Origin: Pseudomonas chlororaphis subsp. aurantiaca
GTDB lineage: Bacteria; Pseudomonadota; Gammaproteobacteria; Pseudomonadales; Pseudomonadaceae
Direction: 5' to 3'
Length of the DNA stretch: 64,000 nucleotides
Assembly: GCF_013466605.1 (NCBI RefSeq)
Contig: NZ_CP059162.1
Span: forward strand, 4,526,001 to 4,590,000
The translations under genes and the position numbers were made by a program. Shown here piece by piece: positions 1 to 30,505 of this stretch. The notes below the pieces were generated by a model. That model searched no databases and had not been told where the DNA came from. It was given only the letters and a program-made list of their open reading frames with translations. Every line of letters starts with the position of its first letter. The first letter of the stretch is position 1.

Positions 1-51
1 GAACTGCTGGATACGGCGGTCACCCAGATCATGATGGCCCGGGATGCCTAG
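1..51 (+). CDS. 3' end of an unidentified gene
   Basis: The first 16 codons of the window stay open on the plus strand and end at a TAG at 49-51; the C-terminus reads ELLDTAVTQIMMARDA. The gene starts outside the window, so its family cannot be judged. It converges on the chemoreceptor gene, with two hairpins in the gap, which fits the end of a real gene. Confidence 0.4.
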   Translation, partial: ELLDTAVTQIMMARDA

Positions 52-67
52 AGTGCGTCCATGGATC

Positions 68-104
68 GGCGCTGAGTCGACTCAGCGCCGGCCTGAAAGC
101 CGGC
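68..104. terminator. Twin hairpins between convergent genes
   Basis: A perfect 9-bp inverted repeat (GGCGCTGAG/CTCAGCGCC, 68-76 and 81-89) partly overlaps a second one (GCCGGC/GCCGGC, 87-92 and 99-104). They lie between the gene ending at 51 and the convergent chemoreceptor stop at 118. No T-run follows on either strand, so this could be a terminator or a REP-like hairpin. Confidence 0.4.
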
Positions 105-117
105 ACCGCTGCCCCCG

Positions 118-1614
118 TTACTTATGAAACGTCTGCCCCAACGCCTCCAGCCGGATCGCGATCGGTGGCAGGCGCTGGCTGCTCAGGGCCAGGTTGCCCA
201 TGTCGTCGGCGGTGTTCTGGGCGATGGCCTGGACCGAGTGCAGGCGGCCGACTATGTCGAGGCTGGCGCTGGATTGCTCGCGGGTGGTGCTGACGATGCG
301 GCCGTTGAGTTGGTCGATATGCGAGATGTCGGCGCCGACGGCCTGGAACATCGCGGAGGCCTGGCGGCTGTCTTCGACGCAGCGCTGGGCGCCTTCGCGG
401 CTGTCGTGCATGGCTTCGGCGGCCTGGCGGCTGCCCTGTTGCAGGGCTTCGATGATGGTCTTGATTTCCTGGGTGGACAGCGCGGTGCGCTGGGCCAGGT
501 TGCGCACCTCATCGGCGACCACGGCGAAACCACGGCCCTGCTCGCCGGCACGGGCGGCCTCGATGGCGGCGTTGAGGGCCAGCAGGTTGGTCTGGGCGGC
601 GATGCTGCCGATCACTTCCAGCACGTTGCCGATCTGCTGCGCCTGCCCCGCCAGGCGCTGCACGGTTTCGTTGGTGCCGTTGATGCGTGACGCCAGCTGG
701 GTGATTTCCGCCTGGGCGCGATCGACACTTTGCTGGCCGAGGCTGATTTGCGCGCTGGCCTGGCCGGCGCGCTCGACCGCCTGCTCGACGTGCACGGCGA
801 TGTCGCCCATGGCATCGCCCATGCGCTGCATGGAGCCGGTCATCTGGGTGATTTCCGTCAACTGATGCTGGGCCCCCTGCTCCAGGGTCTGGCTGGTTTT
901 CGCCAGGTCCTGGCCCAGTTCGCGCAGGCCGTGGGTGTCGCGCACCACGCCATCCACCAGCGCGGTGATCTGCTGCATGAAATGGTCGAAACGCTGGGCC
1001 AGCGACACATGCACCTTGCCGCTCTCGCCCTGATGAACCTCGACGGTCAACTGGGAGGTGGCGGCGAGCATCTTGTCCAGCATGTCCTGGCTCTCCACCG
1101 CGTCGGCATGGCTGTGCACCGCCAGGTACAGCAGGATCACCGTCTCCACCACCACATAGAAGGCGTGCACCGCCACCATGCCGAAACCGCCGTGATGGGC
1201 CATGACGTAGACAGGAAAACCTTGGTGCTGCAGCACATGAAACACCACGTGATGCAGGGCGATGGTCACCGCCGCCAGGAGAATCGGCAGCCAGTCGCGA
1301 TAGAAGGTCAGCACCGCCAGCAGCACGAAAATACCGAAGTGCGCTTCGATCAAACCCTTGGCCTGGTTGATGTGCAACGCCGCCATGAGCATGAAGCCGA
1401 TGGCGATGCAGCAGCGCATCAGGCGCGTGCCGCTGATGGCGCGGTACAGCAGGCTCAGCACCAGGGTCGTGCCGCCGCCCACCAGCAGCGCCTGGGTGAA
1501 GGTGTCGTGCCAGAACGCCAGGCCCAGCGCATAGGCGAACATCAGCCAGATCAGGCCCATCATGATGCGGTCGGCTTTGCGGTAATGCTCGAGAAAACGC
1601 GGGGGGAAAGCCAT
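118..1614 (-). CDS. Methyl-accepting chemotaxis protein with multi-pass N-terminal sensor
   Basis: This 498-residue chemoreceptor would pass a signal to CheW/CheA at the inner membrane. Residues 1-175 hold about six hydrophobic segments with almost no periplasmic loop, so sensing probably occurs within the membrane or at short loops rather than in a PAS or four-helix periplasmic domain. The C-terminal half is the MCP signalling coiled coil, with the conserved hairpin tip ([20 protein letters not shown], then [17 protein letters not shown]). No clear HAMP domain is seen; a linker of about 30 residues joins the two parts. A GGAG about 9 nt upstream supports the ATG at 1614. The ligand is unknown. 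The family call is secure. Confidence 0.93.
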
Positions 1615-1917
1615 GCACTCTTACTCCATGTACGTGACGGGAAGAAAAACGGCAGAGGGCAAAACGGGATGACCGCCTTCGGCGAGCGGTTCAGTCAGCA
1701 ACGATAGTGGCAAATAGCCAAGTTCGCCTTTCAACTATCGACATGGCCACAGCTTTCTTGACGCCGGGCCGCGGGGAATCGGGCCGCAGGTGGGCAAAGT
1801 CGGGAGATTGGCGGGAATGCCATGAAGGGCGGAATGGGCGGGGGACGAGCGACAGCGGCGAGACGGATCCCGCCGACGCGCCACCCGGCAGGGCGACGCG
1901 CAGCGGTCCGCGTGTTG
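1615..1917. other. Intergenic, no gene seen
   Basis: This 303-bp stretch lies between the 3' end of the TonB receptor and the start of the chemoreceptor, both on the minus strand. It should carry the receptor's terminator and the chemoreceptor promoter. I could not pick out a convincing example of either. Confidence 0.5.
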
Positions 1918-4053
1918 TCAGAAGGTCACGCTGGCGCTCAGGCGTGCGGTGCGTGGTTCGCCGACGTTGACCTGCAGCTGGCTGCCGGTGGACGACGGGT
2001 AGTACTGCTTGTCGAACAGGTTGTCGACGTTGAACTGCAGGCTGGTTTTGTAACCGAACAGCGGCGCTTCCCAGCGCACGAAGGCATCGGCCACGGTGTA
2101 GCTGCTGAGCCAGAAATCGTTGGCGTTGTTGGCCGCGCGCTCGCCGACATAACGGGCACCGCCGCCCGCGTGCCAGGCGCCGAACTCCGCGGGCACGTTG
2201 AGGTGGTGGCTCAGGTACAGGCTGGCGGTGTGCTTGGGGGCGTTGGCCAGACGGTGACCTTCGTTGCTCGGGTCGTCGAGGATTTCCGTGTGGTTGTAGG
2301 CGTAGGTGCCGATCAGGTCCCAGCGCTCGGCGATGCGCCCGGTGACGTCCAGCTCCACGCCCTGGGAACCGACCTTGCCGGCGGCTTCAGAAAGGCTCAC
2401 GCCATTGACCGTGGTGGTGGTCACCACGTTCTTCTTCTCGATGTCGTACAGCGCCAGGTTGATGTTCAGGCCCGGCAGCGGATCGTACTTGGCCCCCACC
2501 TCGTAGCTGCGGCCTTCTTCCGGATCGAAGGTCTTGCCGGCGTCGTCTACATCGGTGTTGGGCTTGAACGAACGGCTGTAGTTGCCGTACAGCGACAGGC
2601 TGTCGGTGGCCTTGAACACCAGGCCGAGGAACGGCACGAAGGTGTCGCCATTGCTGTCGCGGTTGACCTTGTAGCTGCGGCCCAGGCCCTGGTCGCTGTA
2701 CTGGTCGTAATGCTGCTGGCGACCGCCGAAGACCAGGATCCACTGGTCGTCCAGGTGCCAATTGTCCTTGAAATACACCGAGCTCGAGGTCAGCTGGTTG
2801 CGCAGGTTGCTTTGGGTGGCGCTGACCAGGCTCGGCTCGGCCAGCTTGCCGTAGACCGGCGAGGTGATGTTGAAACCACCCTGGGCGGTGTTGCGGTAGG
2901 TCTTGCCGCGGTACTGGTCGGAGTGCTCGCTGTCGACGCCCACCAGCAGGTCATGGCGCTGGCCGAACAGTTCCTGCTGGCCGATGAAGTCCCAGCTGGC
3001 GTAGCGGGTCTCGTCGTCGTAGTGGGCACCGTTGGCGGCTCGGCGCAGGGTGTTGCCGGTCAAGCTGTTGGGCTGGGCGATCGACAGGCTGTAGCGGTCG
3101 TTGTTCCAGCCGTAGGTGACGCGGGTTTTCCAGGCGTCGCTCAGCTGGTACTCGAAGCGCGCGCTGGCCACTTCGCGGATGCCGACGCTTTTCGCCCAGC
3201 GTTCGTCCAGGCGCTTGTCGTAGTCGATGTCCGCCGGATGCCCGTTGGTGAACACGGTGCCACGGTCGAAGGGGCTGGAGTAGTCGCTGTATTCGTAGTT
3301 CAGGGTCAGGCTGGCGCGCTCGCCGGTCCAGGTCAGCGACGGCGCCACCAGGGTATGCTCGTTGACCCCGTAGTTGCGCCAGTAGTCTTCATGGCCGCGC
3401 TCGGCGATCAGGCGGTAGGCCAGGCCGGTATCGCCCAGGGGCCCGGTGGTGTCCAGGGCCATGGTGCCGCCGCCTTCGCTGTAGGCCGAGCCGCTGAGTG
3501 TGGTGCTTTGGGTGTATTCCGGCTGTTTGCTGATGATGTTGATCAGCCCGCCCGGCTCCAGCGCGCCGTAGAGCATCGACGCCGGGCCCTTGAGCACTTC
3601 GACCCGCTCGGTGGTGGCGCTGAAGTTCTGCCCCAGGTTGGAGCGCACGCCGTCGCGCAGGATCGAGCCGTCGTCGTTGGTGCCGAAACCGCGCTTGACC
3701 AGCGAGTCCCTGGAACCGCCCAGAGTGTTGCCCTGGCTGACGCCGCTGACGAACTTCATGGCGTCGTTCAGCGAGCGCACCTGATAGTCGGCCAGGGTCT
3801 GCTGGGTCACCACGTTGATCGACTGCGCCTCCTCCTTGATCGGCACATTGCTTTTGCTCGCCGTGCTGGCTTGCGACGTGGTGTAGCCGGTGTCCTGGCT
3901 GAGGCGATCGGCCTGGATATCGGTGGTCGGCAGTTCGACTGCCTCCTGTGCCCACAGCGGGCTGGCGACCAGACAGCAGGACAGTGTCGGCAACATGCGT
4001 TTGATCAGGGTGTTACGGCGGGCACGCGGACAGGATGACTTCAAGGTGTGCAC
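1918..4053 (-). CDS. TonB-dependent ferric-siderophore receptor
   Basis: Outer-membrane beta-barrel of about 711 residues that would import a ferric siderophore using TonB/ExbBD energy. After a signal peptide ending near SPLWA-QE comes the plug domain (INVVTQQTLADYQVRSLNDA, then RGFGTNDDGSILRDGVR and VEVLKGPASMLYGALEPGG), followed by a long barrel ending in an aromatic C-terminus (SASVTF). The order and motifs are those of the TonB-siderophore receptor subfamily (ferrichrome/ferrioxamine-like). No N-terminal FecA-type signalling extension is visible, so it should not drive an ECF sigma factor. The start is uncertain: GTG at 4053 or ATG at 3996, neither with a good ribosome binding site. A Fur box lies upstream. 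The ligand cannot be told. Confidence 0.92.
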   Translation of the reverse strand: MHTLKSSCPRARRNTLIKRMLPTLSCCLVASPLWAQEAVELPTTDIQADRLSQDTGYTTSQASTASKSNVPIKEEAQSINVVTQQTLADYQVRSLNDAMKFVSGVSQGNTLGGSRDSLVKRGFGTNDDGSILRDGVRSNLGQNFSATTERVEVLKGPASMLYGALEPGGLINIISKQPEYTQSTTLSGSAYSEGGGTMALDTTGPLGDTGLAYRLIAERGHEDYWRNYGVNEHTLVAPSLTWTGERASLTLNYEYSDYSSPFDRGTVFTNGHPADIDYDKRLDERWAKSVGIREVASARFEYQLSDAWKTRVTYGWNNDRYSLSIAQPNSLTGNTLRRAANGAHYDDETRYASWDFIGQQELFGQRHDLLVGVDSEHSDQYRGKTYRNTAQGGFNITSPVYGKLAEPSLVSATQSNLRNQLTSSSVYFKDNWHLDDQWILVFGGRQQHYDQYSDQGLGRSYKVNRDSNGDTFVPFLGLVFKATDSLSLYGNYSRSFKPNTDVDDAGKTFDPEEGRSYEVGAKYDPLPGLNINLALYDIEKKNVVTTTTVNGVSLSEAAGKVGSQGVELDVTGRIAERWDLIGTYAYNHTEILDDPSNEGHRLANAPKHTASLYLSHHLNVPAEFGAWHAGGGARYVGERAANNANDFWLSSYTVADAFVRWEAPLFGYKTSLQFNVDNLFDKQYYPSSTGSQLQVNVGEPRTARLSASVTF

Positions 4054-4076
4054 TCAAGGGAGGGAAGGATATTAAT

Positions 4077-4095
4077 AGCAATGATTATCATTGTA
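4077..4095 (-). promoter_or_regulatory. Fur box upstream of the siderophore receptor
   Basis: The core CAATGAT-T-ATCATTG (4079-4093) is a perfect 7-1-7 palindrome. Its central 13 bases match 12 of 13 in the Fur 19-mer consensus. It lies 24 bp before the receptor's first possible start codon, in an AT-rich patch. Iron-dependent repression by Fur is the natural reading. Confidence 0.85.
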
Positions 4096-4194
4096 ATCAG
4101 CGCCCGATTCTCAGTAAATCCCCTTGCCCACGGGAGTTGGCGCTTTTTTAATCCTCCTCCCGAGCAACACCGGGGCTGATGGCCAGTCGGCCTG

Positions 4195-5100
4195 TCACTG
4201 CGCCACGGCCTGGGTCAGATGATCGATCAGGGCCCGCGCCGCCGCCGACAGCTGGCGATGCGGCGGGTAGATCACCGAGAACGGCCGCGAACGACCGCCC
4301 GCCTCCGGCAGCAGCGCCACCAGGCGGCCGCTGGCGATCCGTTCGCGGACGATGAATTCATAGGTCTGGCAGATGCCCATGCCGTGCTCGGCCAGGGACA
4401 CGATGCCCAGCACATCGTCGGCCACCTGGATATTCGCCTGGGGTGTCCACTCCAGGTCCCGCCCGTGCTCGCGCAGCAGCCAGGCACCGACCCGGCCGCT
4501 GCTGGGCATGATGAACGGCAGGCAGGCATGGGCCGCCAGGTCCTCCAGGCGCCGTGGCGTGCCGGCGCGTCGCAGGTAGTCGAGGGACGCCACCAGGCAC
4601 AGCGGCGCGTCCTCCAGCTTGCGCCCGATCAGGCCGCTGTCGGGCAACTGGCCGAGGCGGATCGCCAGGTCGTAACCTTCGGCCACCAGGTCGACATTGC
4701 GGTTACTGATGCTCAGCTCGATGCGCACCTGCGGGTATTGCCGGGCAAAGCCGCCAAGCAGCGCCGGCAGCCGGTAATGGCCGTAGGTAGTCGGCACGCT
4801 CAGGCGCACCCGGCCGTTCAGCTCGCCCTCCTGGCCCTGGATGCTGCGTTCCGCGCCGTCGATCAACTCGAACGCCGCGCGCGACTGTTCCAGGTACAAC
4901 AGGCCGGCCTCAGTCAGGCTCAAGCGCCTTGTGGTGCGGCGCAGCAGTTGCACGCCCAGGCGCGCCTCCAGCCGGGAAATCGCCCGGCTGACCACCGACG
5001 GGGTGGTGCCCAGCGCCACCGCGCCGGCACTCAACGAGCCCTTCTCCACCACGCTGACGAACACCTCGACGTCAGCCAGATAATCGAATCGGCGACTCAC
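4195..5100 (-). CDS. LysR-family transcriptional regulator
   Basis: A 301-residue LTTR with an N-terminal winged helix (FVSVVEKGSLSAGAVALG, then SRAISRLEARLGVQLLRRTT) and a C-terminal substrate-binding domain. The sub-type (RLSLTEAG, LNGRVRLSVPTTYG, IELSISNRNVDLVAEGYDLAIR) is the common AaeR/DmlR-like group. The GTG at 5100 is chosen because GGAGG sits 5 nt upstream at 5106-5110; the frame stays open far upstream but without coding character. It is divergent from the DJ-1/PfpI gene at 5221, its most likely target. The inducer is unknown. Confidence 0.9.
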   Translation of the reverse strand: MSRRFDYLADVEVFVSVVEKGSLSAGAVALGTTPSVVSRAISRLEARLGVQLLRRTTRRLSLTEAGLLYLEQSRAAFELIDGAERSIQGQEGELNGRVRLSVPTTYGHYRLPALLGGFARQYPQVRIELSISNRNVDLVAEGYDLAIRLGQLPDSGLIGRKLEDAPLCLVASLDYLRRAGTPRRLEDLAAHACLPFIMPSSGRVGAWLLREHGRDLEWTPQANIQVADDVLGIVSLAEHGMGICQTYEFIVRERIASGRLVALLPEAGGRSRPFSVIYPPHRQLSAAARALIDHLTQAVAQ

Positions 5101-5220
5101 CTTAACCTCCAGGGAACAAGTGATTTCCAGTGGCGCGAGTTTATCGCCCACAGGGGCATGAATACAGTGAATCACCCGTCGGCTACCGCCGGCTCCCTGA
5201 CCTACACCCTGGAAACCAAC

Positions 5221-6081
5221 ATGCGCCCACTCAGTACCCTCGCTCTTGCCATGAGCATCACCGCCGCCACCTTCAACGCCCAGGCCGGAAACGTCCTGGT
5301 GATGCTCTCGGACTCCGACCACCTCGACCTCAAGGACGGCAAGGTGTTTTCCACCGGTTTCTATCTCAACGAACTGATGCAGCCGGTGAAACAGCTGCTC
5401 GACGCCGGCCACTCGGTAACCTTCGCCACCCCGCAGGGCAAGGCGCCGACCCTGGACCGCTCCTCCACCGACAAGATGTACTTCAACAACGATGTCGCCG
5501 CGCTGCAGGCGCACCAGGCGCTGCTCGACCAGTTGAAAATCACCTCCCCCGGCGAATCGCCGGTGATCAGCCTGGCCCGGGTCGAGCAGATCGGCTACGA
5601 GCATTTCGATGCGTTGTACGTGCCCGGTGGCCACGCGCCGATGCAGGACCTGCTGCACAGCCCCGAGCTGGGCCGGCTGCTGAGCAACTTCCACCAGAAC
5701 AACAAGACCACCGCCCTGGTCTGCCACGGCCCGATCGCCCTGCTGTCGACCCTGCCCCAGGCGCAAGACTTCACCCGACAACTGGCCAGCGGCGGCAAGG
5801 CCAGCGCCCAGGGCTGGATCTACGCCGGCTACCAGTTCACGGTGATCAGCAACCAGGAAGAGGAATTGGCCAAGGGTCTGCTGGACGGCGGCGCCATGCG
5901 TTTCTATCCGCAAACCGCCCTGGAGCAGGCCGGCGGCCTGTACCGCAGCAACCGCTCGCCGTGGAGCGAAAACGTGGTGATTGACCGCGAGCTGGTGACC
6001 GGGCAGAACCCGGGCTCGGCCCAGGGCGTGGCCAAGGTGTTGCTCGAACGCTTGCAGGAGCGCGCCGGCAAAGGCGCATAA
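5221..6081 (+). CDS. Exported DJ-1/PfpI-family protein
   Basis: A 286-residue protein of the class I glutamine amidotransferase-like/DJ-1 superfamily. It begins with a signal peptide (residues 1 to about 22, cleaved near NAQA-GN), then a flavodoxin-like fold containing the nucleophile elbow ALVCHGPIALL, whose Cys is the predicted catalytic residue, preceded by DALYVPGGHAPM. Members act as chaperones/glyoxalases or isonitrile hydratase-like enzymes; periplasmic location is unusual for the family. It is divergently transcribed from the LysR regulator, with 120 bp between. The exact reaction is unknown. The ATG at 5221 fits the signal peptide but has no strong ribosome binding site. Confidence 0.85.
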   Translation: MRPLSTLALAMSITAATFNAQAGNVLVMLSDSDHLDLKDGKVFSTGFYLNELMQPVKQLLDAGHSVTFATPQGKAPTLDRSSTDKMYFNNDVAALQAHQALLDQLKITSPGESPVISLARVEQIGYEHFDALYVPGGHAPMQDLLHSPELGRLLSNFHQNNKTTALVCHGPIALLSTLPQAQDFTRQLASGGKASAQGWIYAGYQFTVISNQEEELAKGLLDGGAMRFYPQTALEQAGGLYRSNRSPWSENVVIDRELVTGQNPGSAQGVAKVLLERLQERAGKGA

Positions 6082-6192
6082 AGAGCGGCGGATCCGACGA
6101 GCTGGCATGACGCCAGCCGTCTGCCGCCGCACTTGTTGTCTACGCTCAAATCGACAGCCCGAAAGGAATCCCGTACTCGCCAGGAGGTGCCC

Positions 6193-8367
6193 ATGAGCAA
6201 GACACCAGATGCCGTTGCCAGTGCCCGTAGAAGCAACATGGCCAAAGCCCTGGAGCGCTGGAACCGACAAGCCGGCACCCGCACCGCATCGCTGTCGCGC
6301 ATCCGCGAACTGGGCCCGGGCGCCGGCGATTCACCGCAGCAACTGGCCAAGTGGGTCGCCCGCGAGAACGCCCGTGCCATGTTGACCCGGGCCGGGCTGG
6401 AACGCCGGATCGGCACCTGGGACCCGACCTTCTACGCCCCCAGCGAGGCCGCCCGCCAGGCGGCAAGGCCGGTGGCGCGGCTGGTCAACGCACCACGCCC
6501 GGGCACGGTGGTCGAGGGTTTCGCCACCGGTTTCCTGGTCTCGCCCAGCCTGTTGCTGACCAACCAGCATGTGTTTCCCCGGTATGTGGATGCGGTGGAC
6601 TGCGCCGCCAATTTTCTCTACGAAAGGCAGGAGCGCGGCATCAACGAAGGCACCTACTTCAACCTGCAGCCGGACCAGTTCTACTTCGCCGACGAGGCGC
6701 TGGACTTCTGCCTGGTGGCCATTTCCGCGCAGGGCACGCGCGGCGAGGCACTGTCGGACTACGGCTGCATCCGCCTGATCGAAGCCACCGGCAAGACCTT
6801 GCGTGGCCGGCCGATGAACATCATTCAGCACCCCGATGGCGGCCCGCGCCAGTACGCCACCACCCACAACCGGCTGCTGGACATTCTCGACCAGGGTTTC
6901 CTGCACTACGAAACCGACACCACCGAAGGCGCCTCCGGCTCCCCGGTGTTCAGCGACAACTGGGAGCTGATCGCCCTGCACCACTGCGGCATTCCCAGGA
7001 CCGACGAAGCCGGCAACATCCTCAAGACCGACCACAGCCTCTGGAACCCCGAGGGGGACGAGGAAAGCACGGTGGACTGGGTGGCCAACGAGGGCACCCG
7101 GGTCAGCAGCATCGTCGGCGCGCTCAAGGCCCTGCAACTGAGCGGCAGGCCGGCCGAACTGCTGGCCCAGCTCATGGAGCAGACCGCCGACCCGCTGGCC
7201 GCGCTCAGCGTCAACGAAGCGGTGACCGTTACGCCGCACCGCCCAGGCATGGCCGATAGGTCGCAGAACATCTTTCATATCTCCGGCCCCACCACCATCA
7301 ACATCGTCAGCCAAGCCGCGGACAGCCCGGCAAGCATTACCTCTACCCTGAGCGTGGCGCCGGCCGAGCCGGTATCAACCGACCCCGCTCCGGCAGTCGC
7401 GGCCCTGGAAAAGACCCTGACCTTCGACCTCGACTACGAGGCCCGCCCCGGCTACGACCCGGGCTTTCTCGGGGTGCCGGTCCCGCCGCCCTTCGTCGAG
7501 GGCGACCAGCTGACCCAGCTCTACCGCGTCGGCGACTACCGCGAACATGCCGCCTCGGCGCGCAATGTGCCGGCCATGAGGCTCTCCCACCTGGACGACG
7601 ACGCCCCGCTGGAGCTGCCTTATCACCGCTATTCGCTGGTGATGAACAAGAAGTACCGCATGCCGATGTGGGCTGCCTCCAATGCCGACTACCGGCCCGA
7701 GGTCCGTGGCGATGCGCGGGGCCGCCGGGGCTTCGGCGGCGAAAGCTGGCGCCTCGACCGCCGGGTGCCGAGCCGCTACCAACTGACCAACAGCGACATC
7801 TACGCGCCGGCCGGCAACTTCGATCGCGGCCATATCGTGCGCCGCGAAGACAGCTGTTGGGGCCAGCCGGGGATCGACACCGAGTACGCCAACGCCGACA
7901 CCTACCACTGGACCAACTGCACGCCGCAGCATGAGCTATTCAACCAGGAGTCGCCCGACGGCGCCCAATACCGCAATCGCAAAGGCATCTGGGGGTACTT
8001 CGAGGGCGAGCTGGCCGAACAGATCGAGGCCGGGGGCGGCCAGGCCGTCATCTTTGCCGGCCCGGTGCTGGGGGACTCCTGCGTCGAGCAGGACTTCGGC
8101 AAGGGCCCGGTGCATTACCCGACCCGCTTCTGGAAAATCGTCATCGTGCCCAAGGACGAATCGCGAACCCCGGAACTGTTGGCCTATGGCTTCCTGTTCG
8201 ATCAGAGCGAGGTGATCAAGGAGTTCGGTCTCGACGTTCAGGAAGCCGCGCTGGACCTGGCCAAGGCCTTCCAGAAGCAGAGGGCGACGCTGGCGGACAT
8301 CTGCCAGATGGCGGGCATTTCCCTGGCCCCCTCGATCATGGCCGCCGACCAGCACAAGCCGGGCTGA
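6193..8367 (+). CDS. Trypsin-like serine protease fused to DNA/RNA non-specific endonuclease (NUC)
   Basis: A 724-residue two-enzyme protein. Residues 1-100 are charged and mostly helical. Residues about 105-310 form a trypsin-like fold with a full apparent triad: His126 (LLLTNQHVF), Asp171 (EALDFCLVAI) and Ser248 (TEGASGSPVF). Residues about 340-405 are a low-complexity linker holding a short beta-prone stretch (about 358-373). Residues about 410-700 are an Endonuclease_NS/NUC domain with the catalytic DRGH motif (544-547) and a Mg-site-like TNCTPQ (N575). No signal peptide or membrane segment is present, so a secreted digestive role is unlikely. AGGAGG 6 nt before the ATG fixes the start. 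Neighbours suggest no pathway. A cytoplasmic conflict effector (for example anti-phage) is inference only. Confidence 0.88.
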   Translation: MSKTPDAVASARRSNMAKALERWNRQAGTRTASLSRIRELGPGAGDSPQQLAKWVARENARAMLTRAGLERRIGTWDPTFYAPSEAARQAARPVARLVNAPRPGTVVEGFATGFLVSPSLLLTNQHVFPRYVDAVDCAANFLYERQERGINEGTYFNLQPDQFYFADEALDFCLVAISAQGTRGEALSDYGCIRLIEATGKTLRGRPMNIIQHPDGGPRQYATTHNRLLDILDQGFLHYETDTTEGASGSPVFSDNWELIALHHCGIPRTDEAGNILKTDHSLWNPEGDEESTVDWVANEGTRVSSIVGALKALQLSGRPAELLAQLMEQTADPLAALSVNEAVTVTPHRPGMADRSQNIFHISGPTTINIVSQAADSPASITSTLSVAPAEPVSTDPAPAVAALEKTLTFDLDYEARPGYDPGFLGVPVPPPFVEGDQLTQLYRVGDYREHAASARNVPAMRLSHLDDDAPLELPYHRYSLVMNKKYRMPMWAASNADYRPEVRGDARGRRGFGGESWRLDRRVPSRYQLTNSDIYAPAGNFDRGHIVRREDSCWGQPGIDTEYANADTYHWTNCTPQHELFNQESPDGAQYRNRKGIWGYFEGELAEQIEAGGGQAVIFAGPVLGDSCVEQDFGKGPVHYPTRFWKIVIVPKDESRTPELLAYGFLFDQSEVIKEFGLDVQEAALDLAKAFQKQRATLADICQMAGISLAPSIMAADQHKPG

Positions 8368-8393
8368 GCGTGCGGCTCAAGGGCTGAGCGGCC

Positions 8394-9080
8394 TCAGTCC
8401 TGTCCCAGGCGCTCGCGGACCAGCGCCTGGGCGTTGCGGGTCATCTGGTCCAGGTGGCGGTCGCGCTGTTTTTCGGCATCGAGCATCGCCCGCTTGCCAT
8501 GCTTTTGCAGCAGGTAGCTGTGAATCTGCCGCACCTCCAGCGAGCGATAGATCGGCGCCGCGTCCAGCAGGCCCATCAAACCGTCGGTGGCGTGATCGCG
8601 GGTGTTCATCAGCACCTGCGGACCGCGCACGCCCAGCACCTGGAAGCCCAGCGCTTCGAACCAGGGCACCTTGCCCGCCGCGCAGGTCAGTTCGGCATGG
8701 GGGTAGCGCTCGCGCATCCGTGCCAGCAGCGAACGGGCGATCCCCTGCCGGCGATGGCTGGCACGCACCGCCATATAGGCCACGCCGCACGCCTCGGGAT
8801 CGTCCTTGACCGGCAGGTACAGCACAAAACCCAGCACCTGTTCTGGATCGTCATCGTCGCTGGCCACCAGCAGCTCCACGGCGATGCCCCGGGAGCCGTC
8901 CAGGGCCTGCAGGTACAGATGCACTTCGTAGCCGATGGCGTACTGGTAGATGTTGTACAGCAGGTTGCTGGGCGGGATCGCTACCGCGCTGATGTCGGTC
9001 AGGTAATCAACCACCATCTGCAGGATCTGGCTGTTGACGGCCTCCGGGCACGGGGTCTGAAAGTGGTTGATAGTGGGCAT
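8394..9080 (-). CDS. GNAT-family N-acetyltransferase
   Basis: A 228-residue protein with a GNAT core in its middle. VLGFVLYLP and GVAYMAVRASHRRQGIARSL (about residues 105-145) form beta-4 and the acetyl-CoA pyrophosphate loop (motif A, RRQGIA), followed by the WFEALGFQVLGVRGP motif B region. The first ~60 residues and the charged C-terminal ~60 residues lie outside the core. The substrate is unknown. The ATG at 9080 was preferred to longer frames because the upstream stretch lacks family character. It converges on the protease-nuclease gene with only 26 bp between. Confidence 0.82.
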   Translation of the reverse strand: MPTINHFQTPCPEAVNSQILQMVVDYLTDISAVAIPPSNLLYNIYQYAIGYEVHLYLQALDGSRGIAVELLVASDDDDPEQVLGFVLYLPVKDDPEACGVAYMAVRASHRRQGIARSLLARMRERYPHAELTCAAGKVPWFEALGFQVLGVRGPQVLMNTRDHATDGLMGLLDAAPIYRSLEVRQIHSYLLQKHGKRAMLDAEKQRDRHLDQMTRNAQALVRERLGQD

Positions 9081-9185
9081 TGCGCGGAGGGCTCCAAAGG
9101 TTGAGGCACGCCTGGACAGCAGGTGTCGGCGGCGGGCCGGGCATGATACCTGTTGTCGCACTATGGCCGTACCGCGATCTGCTTC

Positions 9186-9797
9186 TTAACGGGCGCTGTC
9201 GCCTTGTGGCTTGTAGAACAGAAACTTGCCGGTCTCGGCGGTCTTGCGGTATTGCCTGGCCCAAGCGGGCCGCACGCGCCGGTCATGGAAATACAGGGCG
9301 CCGTGGCTGCGGTCCGGGAGTTGCTGGTTGAGCGCCTTGCGCGCGATTTCCTTGGCCACGATGTAGGGCTCATCTTCCTTCACCTGGTCCGCACGTCCGT
9401 CGCACCACCAGGAAAACTGGCAGGCGCGCTGCTCCGAACCCTGCTTGACCACCGCGCACACCGTATCGGGAAACCCCTCGTGGCCGAGCCGGTTGAGCAC
9501 CACGCTGGCCACGGCTTCCATGTCGGCGGCGGCCCCGCCCTTGGCTTCCCAGTAGATGGAGCGCGCCAGGCAGGTGATGGCGTCGTCCAGCGGCGCGGCG
9601 CCGGCCGGGTCCACCGCCTGGGCTTCGGGAGGGGTAATGGTTTCGCTGCGGGGCGCAGGCTGCTGGTCCGCGGCTTTCTGTTCCAGGACCTGGGCCTTGT
9701 CCTCCGCCACCTCAGGGTTCGCTCTTTCACCCGCGGCCATCGCCAGCCCCCCGCACAGGAGGATCAGGAGACCGCCGGAAATCGCTGTCGGGCGCAT
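9186..9797 (-). CDS. SleB-like cell wall hydrolase (Hydrolase_2)
   Basis: A 203-residue exported protein. A signal peptide (residues 1 to about 22) is followed by a Pro/Ala/Glu-rich linker (about 23-70) and a C-terminal Hydrolase_2 domain of the SleB/CwlJ type. The catalytic Glu is expected in ARSIYWEAKG; VVLNRL and GALYFHD are further family signatures. It would cleave peptidoglycan glycan strands in the periplasm. In non-sporing Pseudomonas such proteins are housekeeping wall-remodelling enzymes. It lies divergent from the CAP-domain gene at 10023. The start at 9797 is supported by the signal peptide and an AAGG upstream. Confidence 0.87.
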   Translation of the reverse strand: MRPTAISGGLLILLCGGLAMAAGERANPEVAEDKAQVLEQKAADQQPAPRSETITPPEAQAVDPAGAAPLDDAITCLARSIYWEAKGGAAADMEAVASVVLNRLGHEGFPDTVCAVVKQGSEQRACQFSWWCDGRADQVKEDEPYIVAKEIARKALNQQLPDRSHGALYFHDRRVRPAWARQYRKTAETGKFLFYKPQGDSAR

Positions 9798-10022
9798 GCT
9801 CGCACCTTCGCCAAAAGCCCGATCCGGGCAAGGGAAAGCCGCCGCCAGCCTGGCGGCTGGCGGCGACTGGAGCTGAGTGTAGTTCGCCGCCGTCCGCCCG
9901 TAACCGGCGCCGCGCCGGCAACAGCAAGAATGGATAACGGCGCCCGTTTTCGGCAAAAAGACCTTGCGCCGACCGGGGCGAAATCGCGCATCATGGGCGC
10001 AATTCGCTCAAGGGAGACCTCC

Positions 10023-10874
10023 ATGCGCTGCCTATCCTCCGCTCTGCCACTGCCCCTGCTGTCGTTGACCCTGGCGTTCGCCACCACCGCCGTGGCGAGC
10101 GACGAGACGCAACTGGTGACATCGATCAACAGCTACCGCAGCCAGGTCCAGCGTTGCGCCGGCCAGGTGTCCCAGGAGCTGCCGCCGCTGGCCGCCGACC
10201 CGCGCCTGGTGCTGCCCGCCAACAGCATCGGCAACCTGCAGCAGGCCCTGGCCAGCAGCGCCTACCCGATGGTCAATGTGCAGGCCATCAGCCTGTCCGG
10301 GCCGCGCGATGCCCAGGCGGCCATGAAGGCGGTGCGGGAAAGTTTCTGCCAGGTGGTGCTGGACCCGCAGTTCGTCGATATCGGCGTCAGCCGCACCGGC
10401 CAGGATTGGCGCATCGTCCTCGCCCGACCGCTGCTCACCGCACGCCTCGGCGACTGGCAGGCGGAGGGCCAGAAGCTCCTGGAAAGCCTCAACAGCGCCC
10501 GCGCGCAGCCACGCCAGTGCGGCAACCAGATCTTCGCCGCCGCCACCCCGCTGGCCTGGAACGCCACCCTGGCCAGCGCGGCCCAGGACCATACCCGGGA
10601 CATGGCCAACCACAACTTCTTCGATCACAAGGACCGCGATGGCCGCACTCCCGGCGACCGCGCCGAACTGGCGGGTTACGCCGGCCAGCAGATCGGCGAG
10701 AATATCGCCGCCGGCCAGGACAGCGTGCGCAAGGTGGTCGATGGCTGGTTGGCCAGCCCCGGCCATTGCGCCAACCTGATGAACCCGCAATACCGCGAGC
10801 TGGGCGCGGCCTATGCGGTCGATCCGAAAAGCGATGCCGGTATCTACTGGACCGCCATGTTCGGCACCCCTTGA
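10023..10874 (+). CDS. Exported CAP-domain (SCP/PR-1-like) protein
   Basis: A 283-residue secreted or periplasmic protein. It has a signal peptide ending near AVAS-DE and an N-terminal region (about 30-150) ending in VSRTGQDWRIVLARPL, itself similar to a degenerate CAP-associated unit. The C-terminal CAP domain (about 160-283) carries the family signatures HTRDMANHNFFDHKDRDG, IGENIAAGQ and WLASPGHCANLMNPQYRELGAA, which provide the His/Glu putative metal site. The biochemical role of bacterial CAP proteins is generally unknown. AGGGAGA upstream supports the ATG at 10023. Confidence 0.88.
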   Translation: MRCLSSALPLPLLSLTLAFATTAVASDETQLVTSINSYRSQVQRCAGQVSQELPPLAADPRLVLPANSIGNLQQALASSAYPMVNVQAISLSGPRDAQAAMKAVRESFCQVVLDPQFVDIGVSRTGQDWRIVLARPLLTARLGDWQAEGQKLLESLNSARAQPRQCGNQIFAAATPLAWNATLASAAQDHTRDMANHNFFDHKDRDGRTPGDRAELAGYAGQQIGENIAAGQDSVRKVVDGWLASPGHCANLMNPQYRELGAAYAVDPKSDAGIYWTAMFGTP

Positions 10875-11267
10875 AGGCCTGACCGACCTTGCCCAGGGGC
10901 GCTCTCAGCGGCGCCCTGCCCCCTTATCGGCCAGCCCCGCGACGCCCCCGCCGGGGAACTAAACTGACTCATCTACCGACCAGGAATCGCTTGCTCCGGG
11001 CGCCCCCGGAACCTGCGCGCAGCCTCGCCTGCCGCCATGGGTTCGACGCCCAGGCCCGATGACCTGCCTCACCTTCCTTAACGGTAGGCATGCCCCCCGC
11101 CCCACGCGGGAGGCGTCCGTGCGTCAGCTCTTCAAAGCACGGGCCTGCCCTGCCAGGCCCACTCATTCGGCAGCGCCGGGACACGGCCTCCCCTCGCGTG
11201 CGCGTGTACCCATCTGGCCACTGCCGGGCTGTCTGCGACAGTGACCCTCACAGCGGAGGACAAGGCC
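10875..11267. other. Intergenic with weak hairpin
   Basis: A GGGCGC/GCGCCC hairpin (10897-10902, 10911-10916) lies just after the CAP gene and may end its transcript, though the following tract is C-rich with few T residues. The remaining ~350 bp show no convincing gene. The methyltransferase promoter must be here but no clear -35/-10 pair was found. Confidence 0.4.
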
Positions 11268-12314
11268 ATGGACGAAGCCAAGCTCAACGATTTCATGGGC
11301 AAACTGGTGTCAGACATGGGCGGCGCAGCCATGCTCGCCAATATGATTCTCGGCGAAGAACTGGGCCTGTACCGGGCCATGGCCGACAGTCGTTTCGTCA
11401 GCCCCGAGGCGCTGGCCGCCAAGACTGGCTGCAACGCGCGGCTGCTGCGCGAATGGCTGAGCGCCCATGCCGCGTCCGGCTACATGGAACACCTCGACGG
11501 CCAGTTCCGCCTGCCGGAAGAACAGGCCCAGGCGCTGGCCATCGAGGATTCGCCGGTGTACGTGGCCGGTGGCGCCGTGGTGGTCTCCGCGCTGTTTCAC
11601 GACAAGGACAAACTGCTGGCGGCAATGCGCGGCGACGGCGCCCTGGCCTGGGGCGATCACCACCCCTGCATGTTCAGCGGCACCGAGCGCTTCTTCCGCC
11701 CCGGCTATCGGGCGCACCTGGTGGCCGAGTGGCTGCCGGCCCTGGACGGCGTGGTGGAAAAACTGCAGGCCGGGGCCAAGGTGGCGGACGTCGGCTGCGG
11801 CCATGGCGCGTCGACGGTGATCATGGCCCAGGCCTATCCCGCCTCGCAGTTTTTCGGCTTCGACTACCACCAGCCCTCAGTCACTACCGCGACGCAACGG
11901 GCCGAGGAAGCCGGGGTGACCGGCCGCGTGCAGTTCTCCCAGGCCAGCGCCAAGACCTACCCCGGCAACGACTACGACCTGATCTGCTTCTTCGACTGCC
12001 TGCATGACATGGGCGACCCGGTGGGTGCCGCGCAACATGCCTTCCAGGCGCTGAAAGACGACGGCAGCGTGCTGCTGGTCGAGCCGTTCGCCAACGACCG
12101 ACTGGACCAGAACATCACCCCGGTCGGCCGGCTGTTCTATGCCGCCTCGACCTTTATCTGCACGCCCAACTCGCTGTCCCAGGAAGTTGGCCTCGGCCTC
12201 GGTGCCCAGGCCGGCGAAGCACGCCTGCGCCAGGTCTTCAGCGAAGCCGGCTTCAGCCAGTTCCGCCGGGCCGCAGAGACGCCGTTCAACCTGATTCTCG
12301 AAGCGCGTAAATGA
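11268..12314 (+). CDS. SAM-dependent methyltransferase with N-terminal winged-helix domain
   Basis: A 348-residue class I methyltransferase. The N-terminal ~100 residues form a winged-helix dimerisation-like region (ALAAKTGCNARLLREWLSAHAASGYM) as in Rv2258c-type enzymes. The Rossmann core starts at AKVADVGCGHGASTVIMAQAY (SAM motif I, GCGHG), followed by FGFDYHQPSV and DLICFFDCLHDMGDP, the usual acidic and HDM loop. The substrate is unknown; the family methylates small molecules. GGAGGA at 11255-11260 fixes the ATG at 11268 rather than a GTG at 11241. A strong hairpin follows the gene. Confidence 0.87.
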   Translation: MDEAKLNDFMGKLVSDMGGAAMLANMILGEELGLYRAMADSRFVSPEALAAKTGCNARLLREWLSAHAASGYMEHLDGQFRLPEEQAQALAIEDSPVYVAGGAVVVSALFHDKDKLLAAMRGDGALAWGDHHPCMFSGTERFFRPGYRAHLVAEWLPALDGVVEKLQAGAKVADVGCGHGASTVIMAQAYPASQFFGFDYHQPSVTTATQRAEEAGVTGRVQFSQASAKTYPGNDYDLICFFDCLHDMGDPVGAAQHAFQALKDDGSVLLVEPFANDRLDQNITPVGRLFYAASTFICTPNSLSQEVGLGLGAQAGEARLRQVFSEAGFSQFRRAAETPFNLILEARK

Positions 12315-12370
12315 AGGAGGATCGGGCGAGCAACAGGGTCATGTAGACGTCGTGCCGTGGAACGCAAAAC

Positions 12371-12394
12371 GGCACCCGGGAAACCCCGGGTGCC
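12371..12394. terminator. Bidirectional terminator hairpin
   Basis: A perfect 10-bp stem, GGCACCCGGG / CCCGGGTGCC, with a 4-nt loop sits between two convergent genes. On the minus strand it is followed by GTTTTGCG, on the plus strand by a weaker T-tract, so it can serve both. Confidence 0.8.
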
Positions 12395-12422
12395 GTGCTT
12401 CTGTACCGCTATGGATAGCGCC

Positions 12423-12872
12423 TTACGCCGCCGGCAGATCCACCAGCACCACCGCCTGTTGCCCTACGCACAACAGCCGGCCGCCATGATGGGCCACGTA
12501 CTCCCGGGCCTCGTCCGGCGACGAGAACCAGCAGTTGAGATGGCCCGCCTGGCGGTAGACCAGTTCGAAGTGCTGCAACTGCTCGGGCGCCAGCTCGTCG
12601 AGGACCTGGCGGTAGCTCTCCCAATGGGCAAAACCGGCCTCACTGGCCAGGGTACGCAACAGGTGTTTGCGCTGCACCTTGTCGCGCTGCCGATACAACT
12701 CGGGCAACGACAGGCCAGGCAAACTGTTGCTCGCCAGCAAGCGTCGCAGGATCGGCAAGGCGCTGGGCAGCGAACCGCAGGTTGCAGTGCGATGCAGGCG
12801 CTTGGCTTCGCGCAGTACCAGGCTGGCGGCCTGACTGGCGGGTGAACGGGGAACGGATTTGTTGATAGGCAT
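12423..12872 (-). CDS. Conserved hypothetical protein
   Basis: A 149-residue soluble protein of unknown function. The ATG at 12872 is preferred because GGAG lies a few nt upstream. The protein is basic in its N-terminal half (SLVLREAKRLHRTATCGSLP, then RRLLASNSLPGLSLPELYRQRD) and has a C-terminal ~60 residues reading like a small alpha/beta unit (HFELVYRQAGHLNCWFSSPDEA). No signal peptide, membrane segment or known catalytic motif is visible. It has the base use of neighbouring chromosomal genes. I do not recognise the family. Confidence 0.7.
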   Translation of the reverse strand: MPINKSVPRSPASQAASLVLREAKRLHRTATCGSLPSALPILRRLLASNSLPGLSLPELYRQRDKVQRKHLLRTLASEAGFAHWESYRQVLDELAPEQLQHFELVYRQAGHLNCWFSSPDEAREYVAHHGGRLLCVGQQAVVLVDLPAA

Positions 12873-13078
12873 ACCAACTCCAAGAGAATCGGCCTGCTCG
12901 CTATTGGCCCGGAGGGGGTATGCAAGCGTGGTGCTTGCGGGAATTGAAGGTGCTTGCGCTTTCGCGAGGTGGGCGCCCAGGAAGCCCGGCCGCCATACTA
13001 ACCAATCCATCCCGGGCTGCCCACCCCCGCTTCAGGCCTGCCAGCCCGGCTGTTTCTCCAGCAGGAAATCGATAACGG

Positions 13079-13192
13079 GTGCTGAACAAGGCCCCGGAAC
13101 TGACCCACACCGTCATCGAGGAAGTCGACACCGACAACTGGGGCTACGCCGGCATGACCACCACCGAATACCGCCAGCGAACGGCGCAATGA
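13079..13192 (+). pseudogene. 3' remnant of a 4-oxalocrotonate tautomerase-like gene
   Basis: From 13082 the plus strand encodes LNKAPELTHTVIEEVDTDNW then GYAGMTTTEYRQRTAQ and a stop at 13190-13192. The T-x-V-x-I-E-E-V-x-T-D-N-W-G pattern is the C-terminal half of the tautomerase superfamily. An in-frame TAA at 13073-13075 cuts it off upstream, and no Met-Pro catalytic N-terminus is found in any frame nearby. It is therefore a decayed or truncated copy. Confidence 0.7.
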
Positions 13193-13305
13193 AAAAGGGC
13201 GGAGCGCCATACGCTGCGCCCTATTAACCGCATATCTTCTGTAGACGCGAGCAGGCGGCGATCCAACTGGCCCGCGATAGCGTCCGTTTGATACACCGCG
13301 GCGTC

Positions 13306-13333
13306 CGCATCGCCGGCAAGCCGGCTCCTACGT
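13306..13333. repeat. REP-type element
   Basis: CATCGCCGGCAAGCCGGCTC followed by CTACG is a typical Pseudomonas REP sequence with a GCCGGCAAGCCGGC hairpin. It sits between the tautomerase remnant and the HD-domain gene. Confidence 0.75.
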
Positions 13334-13398
13334 ACCCGCATCCTCAAGCCCTGCGCCGAGCTTTATACTGTCGCCCTTCCAGCCCCGGAGCAGACCAC

Positions 13399-13938
13399 AT
13401 GGACGTCGTTCTCGAATGCCCGCTCACCGAACAGATCCTTGCCTCTTACGCCACGGTGATCGGCAAGGACCTGCCCGGCTATCGTAATCATATATATCGC
13501 GTGCTGAGCTTCTACACCGCGCTCAATCCGCAGGACCGGCCGCTGTCCTGCGCGGTGCAGATCGCCGCGGCCTTTCATGACCTGGGTATCTGGACCCACG
13601 GCACCCTCGACTACCTGGCCCCGTCGATCCAACTGGCCCGGGCCTTTCTGGCCGAGCGCGGCGAGTCGCAGCTGGATGAGCAGGTCAGTGCGCTGATCGA
13701 GCAGCATCACAAACTGCGCCCCTATCGCCAGGCCCACGCCGCGAGCGTCGAACCGTTCCGGCAGGCCGACACGATCGACGTCTCCCTGGGCCTGCTCAGC
13801 TTCGGCCTGCCCCGCCCGTTTATCCGCAAGGTGCAGGCACGCTACCCCGACCAGGGGTTTCACTGGATGCTGGTGCGCGCCTCGGCCTGGCAGTTGCTGC
13901 GTACGCCGCTGCGGCCGTTGCCGATGTTCCGCTGGTAA
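13399..13938 (+). CDS. HD-domain protein (putative phosphohydrolase)
   Basis: A 179-residue soluble protein. The segment AVQIAAAFHDLGIW (about residues 48-61) supplies the HD dyad, and upstream GYRNHIYRVLSFY and downstream LIEQHHKLRPY supply the further His residues expected of an HD metal site. Such small HD proteins hydrolyse nucleotides or other phosphoesters; the substrate here is unknown. GGAG 9 nt upstream supports the ATG at 13399. It ends 4 bp before the convergent DUF1428 gene. Confidence 0.8.
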   Translation: MDVVLECPLTEQILASYATVIGKDLPGYRNHIYRVLSFYTALNPQDRPLSCAVQIAAAFHDLGIWTHGTLDYLAPSIQLARAFLAERGESQLDEQVSALIEQHHKLRPYRQAHAASVEPFRQADTIDVSLGLLSFGLPRPFIRKVQARYPDQGFHWMLVRASAWQLLRTPLRPLPMFRW

Positions 13939-13942
13939 CGCC

Positions 13943-14296
13943 TCAGGCATTCACCAGCATCTTGAACCCACCATAAATCATGCGCTGGCCGTCGAATGGC
14001 ATCGGGCAGACGTCGGGCTTGAGCCGCGGGTCTTCCATGGCTTTTTGCATGCCTGCGTCGCGGATTTCGCGGGACGGCCAGATGATCCAGCTGAACACCA
14101 CGGTCTCCTCCGCCTTGAGCTTGACCGCCATGGGGAACGAGGTCAGCTTGCCCTCGGGCACATCGTCGCCCCAGCAATCGACCACGCTCAGGGCGCCGAA
14201 CTCCTTGAACACTTTCGCCGCGGTCTCTGCATGCTGCTTGAAGGCCTCACGGTTGGCGGTGGGTACCGCCAGGACACAACCATCGACATAAGACAT
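13943..14296 (-). CDS. DUF1428-family protein
   Basis: A 117-residue protein with the DUF1428 signatures MSYVDGCVLAVP, VVDCWGDDVPEGKLTSFP, VVFSWIIWPSREIRDAG and MPFDGQRMIYGGFK at the C-terminus. The family is a ferredoxin-like dimeric alpha/beta-barrel fold of unknown function, full length here. A purine-rich GGAGCAGGA upstream supports the ATG at 14296. Confidence 0.9.
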   Translation of the reverse strand: MSYVDGCVLAVPTANREAFKQHAETAAKVFKEFGALSVVDCWGDDVPEGKLTSFPMAVKLKAEETVVFSWIIWPSREIRDAGMQKAMEDPRLKPDVCPMPFDGQRMIYGGFKMLVNA

Positions 14297-14430
14297 GATC
14301 CTGCTCCTGCTGATTGGGGTTGAACATCCGGGGCCGAACCGGGTGTCGGCCCTTCTGTGAACTGGTCGATTCGCATCGTCGACAATCGACAGGCCGGCGC
14401 GAAAAAAGCCGGGAGGCCGACCGGCGGCCT

Positions 14431-15516: not shown

Positions 15517-15715
15517 GATGGCAACCCTCGCACAGCGTCGACCACGGCCACCCGCTCACGACGGGGCAGGCTCCAACCGGGTACCGCACGACCATGCCTG
15601 GGTTGAGTATAGGTGCTGGGGTCTGCGCCCCAGGCTCAAGAAGGGATTGGGAACGCCGCAGCCGACCAGCCGCATGCCTGCGGCGGTTCAGCCATACCAC
15701 GCTACCGCATTATTT

Positions 15716-15791
15716 GCAGGAGCGAGCCTGCTCGCGATGGCGTCCGCTCTGGCCCCGCGCAGTGCCTGCATCGCCAGCAAGCTGGCTACAG
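15716..15791. repeat. Inverted REP pair (BIME-like)
   Basis: GCAGGAGCGAGCCTGCTCGC plus GATGGCG at 15716-15742 is mirrored by CATCGCCAGCAAGCTGGCTA at 15769-15788. The inverted pair with a short spacer is typical of a Pseudomonas BIME in intergenic DNA. Confidence 0.75.
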
Positions 15792-15859
15792 GGGCCGCGC
15801 CAGCCACATGGCTTGTGAATGTCACGACCCCAGGCAGGAGCGGATCGGGTCAGTCGCGG

Positions 15860-30370: not shown

Positions 30371-30505
30371 ATGAATGTAAATAAACGTCAGCCGTTCTAA
30401 ATCTGGCGCCAACTGTTCATCCTGACAGTGCTCACGTACCTGATCTGGTACGTGGCGGTCCCAAGAGTAGGCATTCACTTATTCGAAGCAGGACATTGGT
30501 GCTAG
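30371..30505 (+). pseudogene. Small membrane-protein reading frame broken by a nonsense codon
   Basis: Starting at ATG 30371 (AAGGA about 10 nt upstream) the frame reads MNVNKRQPF, then TAA (30398-30400), then continues open as IWRQLFILTVLTYLIWYVAV and PRVGIHLFEAGHWC to TAG 30503-30505. The part after the stop contains a clear single membrane helix. It may be a decayed 44-residue membrane protein, or chance. Confidence 0.35.

What the first reader, a model, noticed from the sequence alone, without database searches (positions are those of the whole stretch)
6193..8367. Single-chain protease-nuclease: trypsin-like domain fused to a NUC endonuclease
One polypeptide carries an apparently intact serine protease triad (His126, Asp171, Ser248) and an intact DRGH nuclease motif, without a secretion signal. 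Two destructive enzymes kept in the cytoplasm need control. An attractive reading is a conflict or abortive-infection effector in which the protease is triggered by an invader and frees or activates the nuclease. Seen: domains and motifs. Inferred: role.
Basis: partly seen in the sequence, partly recalled or inferred. Interest (0 to 1): 0.75.

Follow-up and report, generated by a model that had tools for sequence, protein, structure and literature searches.

The report
Fused protease and DNA-cutting enzyme
A Pseudomonas gene encodes one protein that joins a protein-cutting and a DNA-cutting enzyme; such fusions were already predicted to be bacterial suicide or defence proteins, and relatives carry the same protease joined to other destructive enzymes, which makes the idea testable.

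Summary
Confirmed: window 6193-8367 (+) encodes one 724-aa protein with an intact trypsin-like protease and an intact NucA/EndoG-type nuclease and no evident export signal. The fusion is known: Kaur et al. 2020 (PMC7159879) predicted NucA-trypsin conflict systems in which proteolysis releases the nuclease, and Caulobacter LypC has the same domain order (PMC13236601). The window gene stands alone: no defence genes among 10 neighbours, no LypA/LypB-like gene found. It is rare (4 of 398 genomes of the genus); its nearest fetched outside relative is on a conjugative plasmid. New here: in other plasmids the same protease head (triad 40 of 40) is fused to unrelated enzymes: Endonuclease I, an EEP nuclease, subtilisin, lipase-like hydrolases. 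The protease thus looks like a chassis carrying swappable destructive effectors. It resembles glutamyl endopeptidases, and a Glu recurs just before the nuclease, suggesting self-release. Cell death or defence is likely but untested; in LypC the nuclease was dispensable. No structure model could be obtained.

The parts
6193..8367 (+). CDS, 724 aa, trypsin-like protease fused to NucA/EndoG-type endonuclease
6182..6187 (+). AGGAGG ribosome-binding site, 5 bases before the ATG
   Evidence: sequence
6523..6978 (+). Trypsin_2 domain, residues 111-262 (core of the protease head)
6568..6570 (+). His126 of the triad, 27 of 27; 40 of 40 protease heads
6703..6705 (+). Asp171 of the triad, 27 of 27; 40 of 40
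6934..6936 (+). Ser248 of the triad, 27 of 27; 40 of 40
6979..6981 (+). His263, 40 of 40; aligned by phmmer with a His of SplB; possible S1-pocket His of Glu/Gln-preferring proteases (that role is recalled)
7108..7443 (+). variable linker, residues 306-417
7408..7410 (+). Glu406, candidate self-cleavage position (inferred) just before the nuclease module
7615..8319 (+). Endonuclease_NS domain, residues 475-709
7831..7833 (+). nuclease His547 (DRGH), 27 of 27
7915..7917 (+). nuclease Asn575, 27 of 27
8002..8004 (+). nuclease Glu604, 27 of 27
5221..6081 (+). upstream same-strand DJ-1/PfpI-family gene with an export-signal-like N-terminus, 111 bases before the ATG; not shown to be a partner

Best explanation
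A stand-alone, horizontally spread protein in which a conserved V8/Spl-like protease head controls a destructive enzyme on the same chain, here a NucA/EndoG-type nuclease. In the resting cell the cytoplasmic protein is latent. A signal not identified here (an infection product, damaged DNA or another protease) switches on the protease, which cuts its own linker, most plausibly after Glu406. This frees or unlocks the nuclease, which degrades nucleic acid and kills the cell or clears invading DNA. Shown: two intact catalytic domains, their conservation, no export signal, patchy distribution, the same head fused to other enzymes, and some relatives beside EAD or STAND-type genes. Inferred: latency, trigger, self-cleavage, cell death and any role in defence.
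For: All catalytic residues of both enzymes intact in 27 of 27. The same head is fused to other effectors: Endonuclease_1 in L018; Exo_endo_phos plus Endonuclease_1 in L082; Peptidase_S8 in L083; an LCAT/PGAP1-like hydrolase, N-terminal, in L084; GDSL hydrolase plus Exo_endo_phos in L090. Triad and His263 are 40 of 40 heads. In the protease tree the effector label changes at least 6 times; strongly supported branches force 3. Published prediction that proteolysis releases the nuclease, and proof of protease-activated nucleases in HamM/HamA and Avs, with a different fold on a separate chain. Nearest solved relatives: EndoG/NucA and SplB/V8/glutamyl endopeptidase. Glu in the 5 residues 12-16 before invariant Gly420: 25 of 31 fused proteins, 1 of 8 nuclease-only proteins; thinned 21 of 27, shuffle mean 7.8, 0 of 5000 as high. 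Rare and mobile. Links to conflict genes in some relatives.
Against: LypC nuclease mutants still lysed, and C. endophyticus LypC lacks the nuclease. The LypABC-like relative L065 has a protease head in a different, strongly separated clade, so its context transfers only weakly to the window gene. No sensor or NLR partner found: three Trypsin_2 genes in the genome, no L065-ATPase-like gene (the search's only positive control is the query's own genome), two NACHT hits under the cut-off. No defence genes among 10 neighbours (one hit to mad2 that Pfam reads as a generic methyltransferase). Exported-looking hydrolases near some relatives. The Glu window was chosen after seeing the alignment; rows are related; Lys is also enriched there (10 against 4.0); 6 of 8 controls are close Pseudomonas relatives, and L030, L033 and L034 were left out because too little sequence precedes the motif. 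No structure, expression or phage data.
Confidence: 0.53

Rival explanations
1. The protease is the business end, as reported for LypC: it cleaves host or invader proteins or a downstream lytic factor, and the fused enzyme is a secondary effector or a structural/stability element.
For: LypC S296A abolished lysis, H471A and N505A did not, and deleting the nuclease domain destabilised LypC. The protease is the constant part, the fused enzyme the variable part; L088 is protease only.
Against: Nuclease residues H547, N575 and E604 are invariant in 27 of 27, so nuclease activity is under selection; the swapped partners are themselves hydrolases or nucleases, not structural domains.
Confidence: 0.17
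2. Not immunity: enzymes for breaking down nucleic acids, lipids and proteins outside the cell or after lysis (scavenging or competition), leaving the cell by lysis or an unrecognised route.
For: Near some relatives are S1/P1 nucleases, a DUF3616 protein and an endonuclease/exonuclease/phosphatase-type protein (below Pfam cut-off) with export-signal-like starts; the L086 head lies beside GH19, amidase and murein endopeptidase genes; one homologue lies in a T2SS cluster. A mixed set of nucleases, lipases and proteases also suits digestion.
Against: 24 of 25 family rows lack a hydrophobic N-terminus over 1.5; the window locus has no such operon; L057 has an EAD5-trypsin neighbour; the matrixin-type neighbour in L014 shows no export signal.
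Confidence: 0.2
3. A plasmid- or island-borne toxin with a small unrecognised inhibitor, acting in stabilisation or exclusion of other DNA rather than in phage defence.
For: 108 plasmid records match, 22 over at least 80% of the query; the R. etli homologue follows repABC directly. Cyanobacterial NucA has a dedicated inhibitor, NuiA (recalled).
Against: No inhibitor-like gene adjoins the window gene: its neighbours are a DJ-1/PfpI gene and a convergent GNAT gene.
Confidence: 0.1

Closest known systems
NucA-trypsin systems ('System 3'), Kaur et al. 2020, PMC7159879
   Same: NucA-type (Endonuclease_NS) nuclease and trypsin-like peptidase in one protein; proteolysis predicted to release the effector
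   Different: Published set mostly alphaproteobacterial, often with EAD1, extra peptidases or STAND genes; here a single gene in Pseudomonas with none of these adjacent, and a head that in relatives carries other effectors. Of those, the passages read mention only subtilisin, beside NucA
LypC of the LypABC CARD-NLR-like system, Caulobacter crescentus, PMC13236601
   Same: N-terminal trypsin-like protease, linker, C-terminal endonuclease
   Different: LypC works with LypA and LypB, not found here. LypC itself was not compared; L065, from an LypABC-like gene run, stood in for it, and its protease head falls in another clade
HamM/protease-HamA and Avs1 nuclease-protease pairs, Tuck et al. 2025, PMC12799240
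   Same: A trypsin-like protease activates a latent nuclease
   Different: There the nuclease is MBL-fold on a separate chain and the protease is fused to a defence enzyme; the mapped cuts are after Ile
Mitochondrial endonuclease G and cyanobacterial NucA
   Same: Nearest solved relatives of the nuclease module
   Different: Not fused to a protease (recalled)
V8 / Spl / glutamyl endopeptidase family
   Same: Nearest solved relatives of the protease module
   Different: Secreted single-domain enzymes (recalled)

Membership tests
NucA-trypsin conflict systems (Kaur 2020, System 3) | NucA/Endonuclease_NS domain | tested here: met
   E 2.5e-31; 25 of 25 family rows
NucA-trypsin conflict systems (Kaur 2020, System 3) | trypsin-like peptidase fused or in the same operon | tested here: met
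   E 1.7e-17; 25 of 25
NucA-trypsin conflict systems (Kaur 2020, System 3) | EAD1, STAND or further peptidase partners at the locus (published for a subset only, so not strictly defining) | tested here: not met
   none among the scanned neighbours
NucA-trypsin conflict systems (Kaur 2020, System 3) | proteolytic cascade deploys the nuclease | not testable with these tools
   needs biochemistry
LypABC / CARD-NLR systems | LypC-like trypsin-nuclease protein | tested here: inconclusive
   27% identity to L065 over residues 112-720; nuclease regions grouped (92/82), protease heads in separate clades (100/100); LypC sequence not compared
LypABC / CARD-NLR systems | LypA-like and LypB-like partner genes at the locus | tested here: not met
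   not among the neighbours scanned; genome-wide nothing found, but with a weak positive control
Gated nuclease-protease pairs (HamM, Avs) | MBL-fold nuclease on a separate chain, protease fused to a defence enzyme | tested here: not met
   nuclease is Endonuclease_NS and on the same chain
Glutamyl endopeptidase-like (V8/Spl) proteases | sequence similarity and S1 histidine | tested here: inconclusive
   similarity met; His263 40 of 40 and aligned with a SplB His, but the role of that His is recalled and cleavage preference untested

The most novel reading that the evidence does not exclude
A family of single-protein suicide devices built on one chassis: a cytoplasmic Glu-preferring protease head fused to interchangeable executioners (three kinds of nuclease, subtilisin, lipase-like hydrolases), each held as a zymogen and released by the head's own cut, at Glu406|Lys407 in the window protein. 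One chain would be both initiator and executioner, without an NLR sensor gene.
Probability: 0.28. Interest if true: 0.75.

Novelty: new variant of a known kind. Interest (0 to 1): 0.5.

Why it matters
Kaur et al. predicted the NucA-trypsin fusion in 2020, but I found no report of an assayed stand-alone member, nor of the same head on Endonuclease I, EEP nuclease or lipase-like partners, in the searches made (open-licence papers only). A constant protease with swapped executioners would show how bacteria reuse one trigger for many ways of killing. The lone window gene is a minimal test of whether the head activates its partner, which the LypABC work leaves open.

Tried and rejected
Structure prediction could not be run: 13 submissions all met a full queue, so there is no model and no fold search; whether the nuclease site is occluded remains unknown.

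Phage origin: no match in 50,697 phage records at E 1e-5 and no relative in three viral-contig scans.

Known defence system: PADLOC gives only weak hits to the protease part of the query (RT-Protease_XI, LmuA); across the family RT-Protease_XI is hit by 25 of 25 rows, best E 4.8e-11, which I read as the shared trypsin fold.

Empty-site comparison: in 8 relatives the region matches the window only at the downstream GNAT gene (L074 also at 14552-15500), so a clean insertion site could not be shown.

My first view that L018 is a diverged trypsin-NucA protein was wrong: its nuclease is Endonuclease I. It had been put in the full-length tree, where it is the longest end branch.

My first view that the window protein and LypABC-like L065 share one ancestral fusion is not supported: nuclease and protease trees disagree.

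A linker segment 'NIFHISGPTTINIV' looked like a possible amyloid-type motif; other alternating hydrophobic stretches occur there in 10 of 27 rows by pattern, not in the query. I could not give it a function. Sigma-70 promoter scan: none found. Neighbour enrichment: no background set, so none is claimed.

Full report
What is there. The gene at 6193-8367 (+) encodes 724 aa with a good ribosome-binding site. Pfam finds Trypsin_2 (111-262) and Endonuclease_NS (475-709). A profile of 25 relatives has EndoG, NucA and Serratia-type nuclease as nearest solved nucleases and SplB, V8 and glutamyl endopeptidases as nearest solved proteases. The genus is taken as Pseudomonas because a same-genus genome (G614, contig of 55,748 bases) appears to be the NFIX28 record found by name.

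Conservation. H126, D171, S248, G246, G249, R550, H547, N575 and E604 are 27 of 27. They were selected by BLAST cover of both domains and include near-duplicates. Four more trypsin-Endonuclease_NS proteins confirmed by Pfam (L057, L066, L068, L069) entered the trees and later counts only. Conserved blocks outside the catalytic cores are N-E-G-x-R303-x-S305 at the end of the protease (R303 and S305 27 of 27) and R-x-G420-Y-D-P-x-F425-L before the nuclease (G420 and F425 27 of 27); the latter also occurs in nuclease-only proteins, so it belongs to the nuclease module. Between them lies a linker of variable length.

Effector swapping. A late check showed that L018 (Streptomyces), 42% identical to the window protease (residues 68-351), carries Endonuclease_1, not Endonuclease_NS. 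Searching plasmids with L018 and with residues 1-305 of the window protein (82 records matched the latter, 60 listed) and fetching nine further places, chosen because they were annotated as something else or not at all, gave: L082 Exo_endo_phos plus Endonuclease_1; L083 Peptidase_S8; L084 an LCAT/PGAP1-like hydrolase N-terminal to the protease; L086 a GDSL-like domain (below cut-off); L090 a GDSL hydrolase before and Exo_endo_phos after the protease; L085 and L087 a tail that looks like an alpha/beta hydrolase by eye, without a Pfam hit; L088 protease only; L089 a trypsin-NucA copy that appears to be interrupted by a transposase. Because they were picked as exceptions, no frequency follows. 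The triad and His263 are 40 of 40 in an alignment of 31 trypsin-NucA heads and nine others. In the protease tree the window head lies in a 35-row clade with all nine others (100/100); the five heads of L057, L065, L066, L068 and L069 form a separate clade. The NucA/other label changes at least 6 times (bootstrap 6-7; starred branches force 3; shuffles mean 8.2, 18 of 500 as low), so effectors were exchanged repeatedly on one kind of head. The nuclease-region tree instead groups the window with L065/L066 (92/82, below the tool's star). Nuclease and protease modules therefore have partly separate histories, and the LypABC-like fusion may be an independent one.

A possible cleavage site. The protease resembles glutamyl endopeptidases; His263 aligns with a His of SplB. 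That this is the S1 His of Glu-preferring enzymes is recalled, not tested. In 22 of 27 rows a Glu lies 12-16 residues before Gly420; with the four extra proteins 25 of 31; with four near-duplicates removed 21 of 27 against a within-linker shuffle mean of 7.8, and 0 of 5000 shuffles reach it; nuclease-only proteins 1 of 8, three more being left out because too little sequence precedes the motif. In the window protein this is Glu406|Lys407. The window was chosen after looking, rows are related, Lys is enriched there too, and most controls are one Pseudomonas lineage, so this is a lead, not a result. The Glu could instead be structural.

Relatives and spread. Plasmids: 108 of 72,556 records match the whole protein in part or whole, 22 with at least 80% cover; the five rhizobial genera among the ten listed genera make 52 of 108. 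Phages: none; viral contigs: none in three scans. Same genus: 4 of 398 genomes including its own at E<=1e-25; this cut-off leaves out more distant types such as L069, seen at 7.5e-20. Class of G253: 3 of 337, G253 included, at E<=1e-60, again strict. The window gene groups with one same-genus relative (90% identical) and an R. etli conjugative-plasmid gene (100/100; 100/99 and 100/94 in the domain trees); L060/L061 and L069, also same genus, lie on separate branches, which suggests more than one acquisition. The R. etli gene follows repABC.

Neighbours. Of 20 plasmid stretches fetched carry annotation (L048, L050 and L053 have none). Counting by hand from those tables, 9 of 17 have a same-strand annotated gene within 150 bases and 8 of 17 do not; the gene table is incomplete, and L018 among them is the Endonuclease I member. 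Within about 8 kb: S1/P1 nuclease in 3 of 17 (L016, L057, L058), PLD-like protein in 3 (L052, L057, L058), conflict-type genes in 5 (NACHT in L015; patatin with pYEATS in L052; SIR2 with an ATP-binding protein in L056; EAD5-trypsin and DNA 7-deazaguanine genes in L057; CHAT in L058), a T2SS cluster in 1 (L013) and type I secretion genes in 1 (L049); toxin-antitoxin genes in L049 and L055 were not counted. No background was measured. L066 has a divergent subtilisin protein (with a sub-threshold trypsin match) next door. Against a cytoplasmic role, the S1/P1 nucleases of L016 and L057, DUF3616 of L057 and the endonuclease/exonuclease/phosphatase-type protein of L062 have export-signal-like N-termini.

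The window locus. Upstream on the same strand, 111 bases away, is a DJ-1/PfpI-family gene with an export-signal-like start; downstream a convergent GNAT gene. L059 shares this stretch of DNA; L060 and L061 give no blastn match to window 1-16000, so DJ-1/PfpI is not a conserved partner. Ten neighbours scanned against PADLOC gave one hit (mad2) that Pfam reads as a generic methyltransferase. The genome holds 3 Trypsin_2 genes in all, nothing like the L065 ATPase (the query's own genome G084 matches itself, five others do not), nothing but the window gene itself like the L065 644-aa protein, and two NACHT matches under the cut-off.

Literature. Kaur et al. 2020 (section 32 read, other passages seen; [quoted passage not shown] a follow-up names it again (PMC8195603, passages). 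The LypABC paper (passages read) reports that LypC protease activity is required for lysis while nuclease mutants H471A/N505A have no effect, and that lypABC lies outside any defence island. Tuck et al. 2025 (part 1 of 6 and passages read) prove protease activation of a different, MBL-fold nuclease.

Verdict. A real, intact, stand-alone trypsin-NucA protein. The cell-death or defence role is the best-supported reading but unproven, and one published result in a relative speaks against the nuclease being the killer.

Noticed in passing
window 28959-41219: A lower-G+C stretch (0.51-0.62 in 2-kb bins) with a VgrG gene (38682-41219; T6SS_Vgr, Phage_GPD domains), a PGAP1-like hydrolase, two similar lipoprotein-like ORFs and, by eye, PAAR-like and amidase-like ORFs: looks like a type VI secretion effector/immunity island.
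   Followed up: partly
L058, L057, L016 (rhizobial plasmids): S1/P1 nuclease genes recur near the trypsin-nuclease gene, with PLD-like genes in two of the three; export-signal-like starts in L016 and L057.
   Followed up: partly
L065 5528-15344: LypABC-like gene run with an added weakly lysozyme-like gene and an extra trypsin gene.
   Followed up: partly
L013 7878-9983: A trypsin-nuclease gene sits between gspF and gspG of a type II secretion cluster on a Cupriavidus plasmid.
   Followed up: no
L086 1468-6424: Geminocystis plasmid gene run: protease head with a GDSL-like tail, then GH19, TPR, amidase and murein endopeptidase genes.
   Followed up: no
L089 3791-7661: R. leguminosarum plasmid: trypsin part and Endonuclease_NS part annotated on either side of an ISNCY transposase gene, apparently a copy broken by an insertion.
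   Followed up: no
about window 7255-7317 (protein residues 355-375): Linker segment NIFHISGPTTINIV, kept in the 90% relative but for its last residue and similar in R. etli (FTFTGPVTINV); function unexplained.
   Followed up: partly
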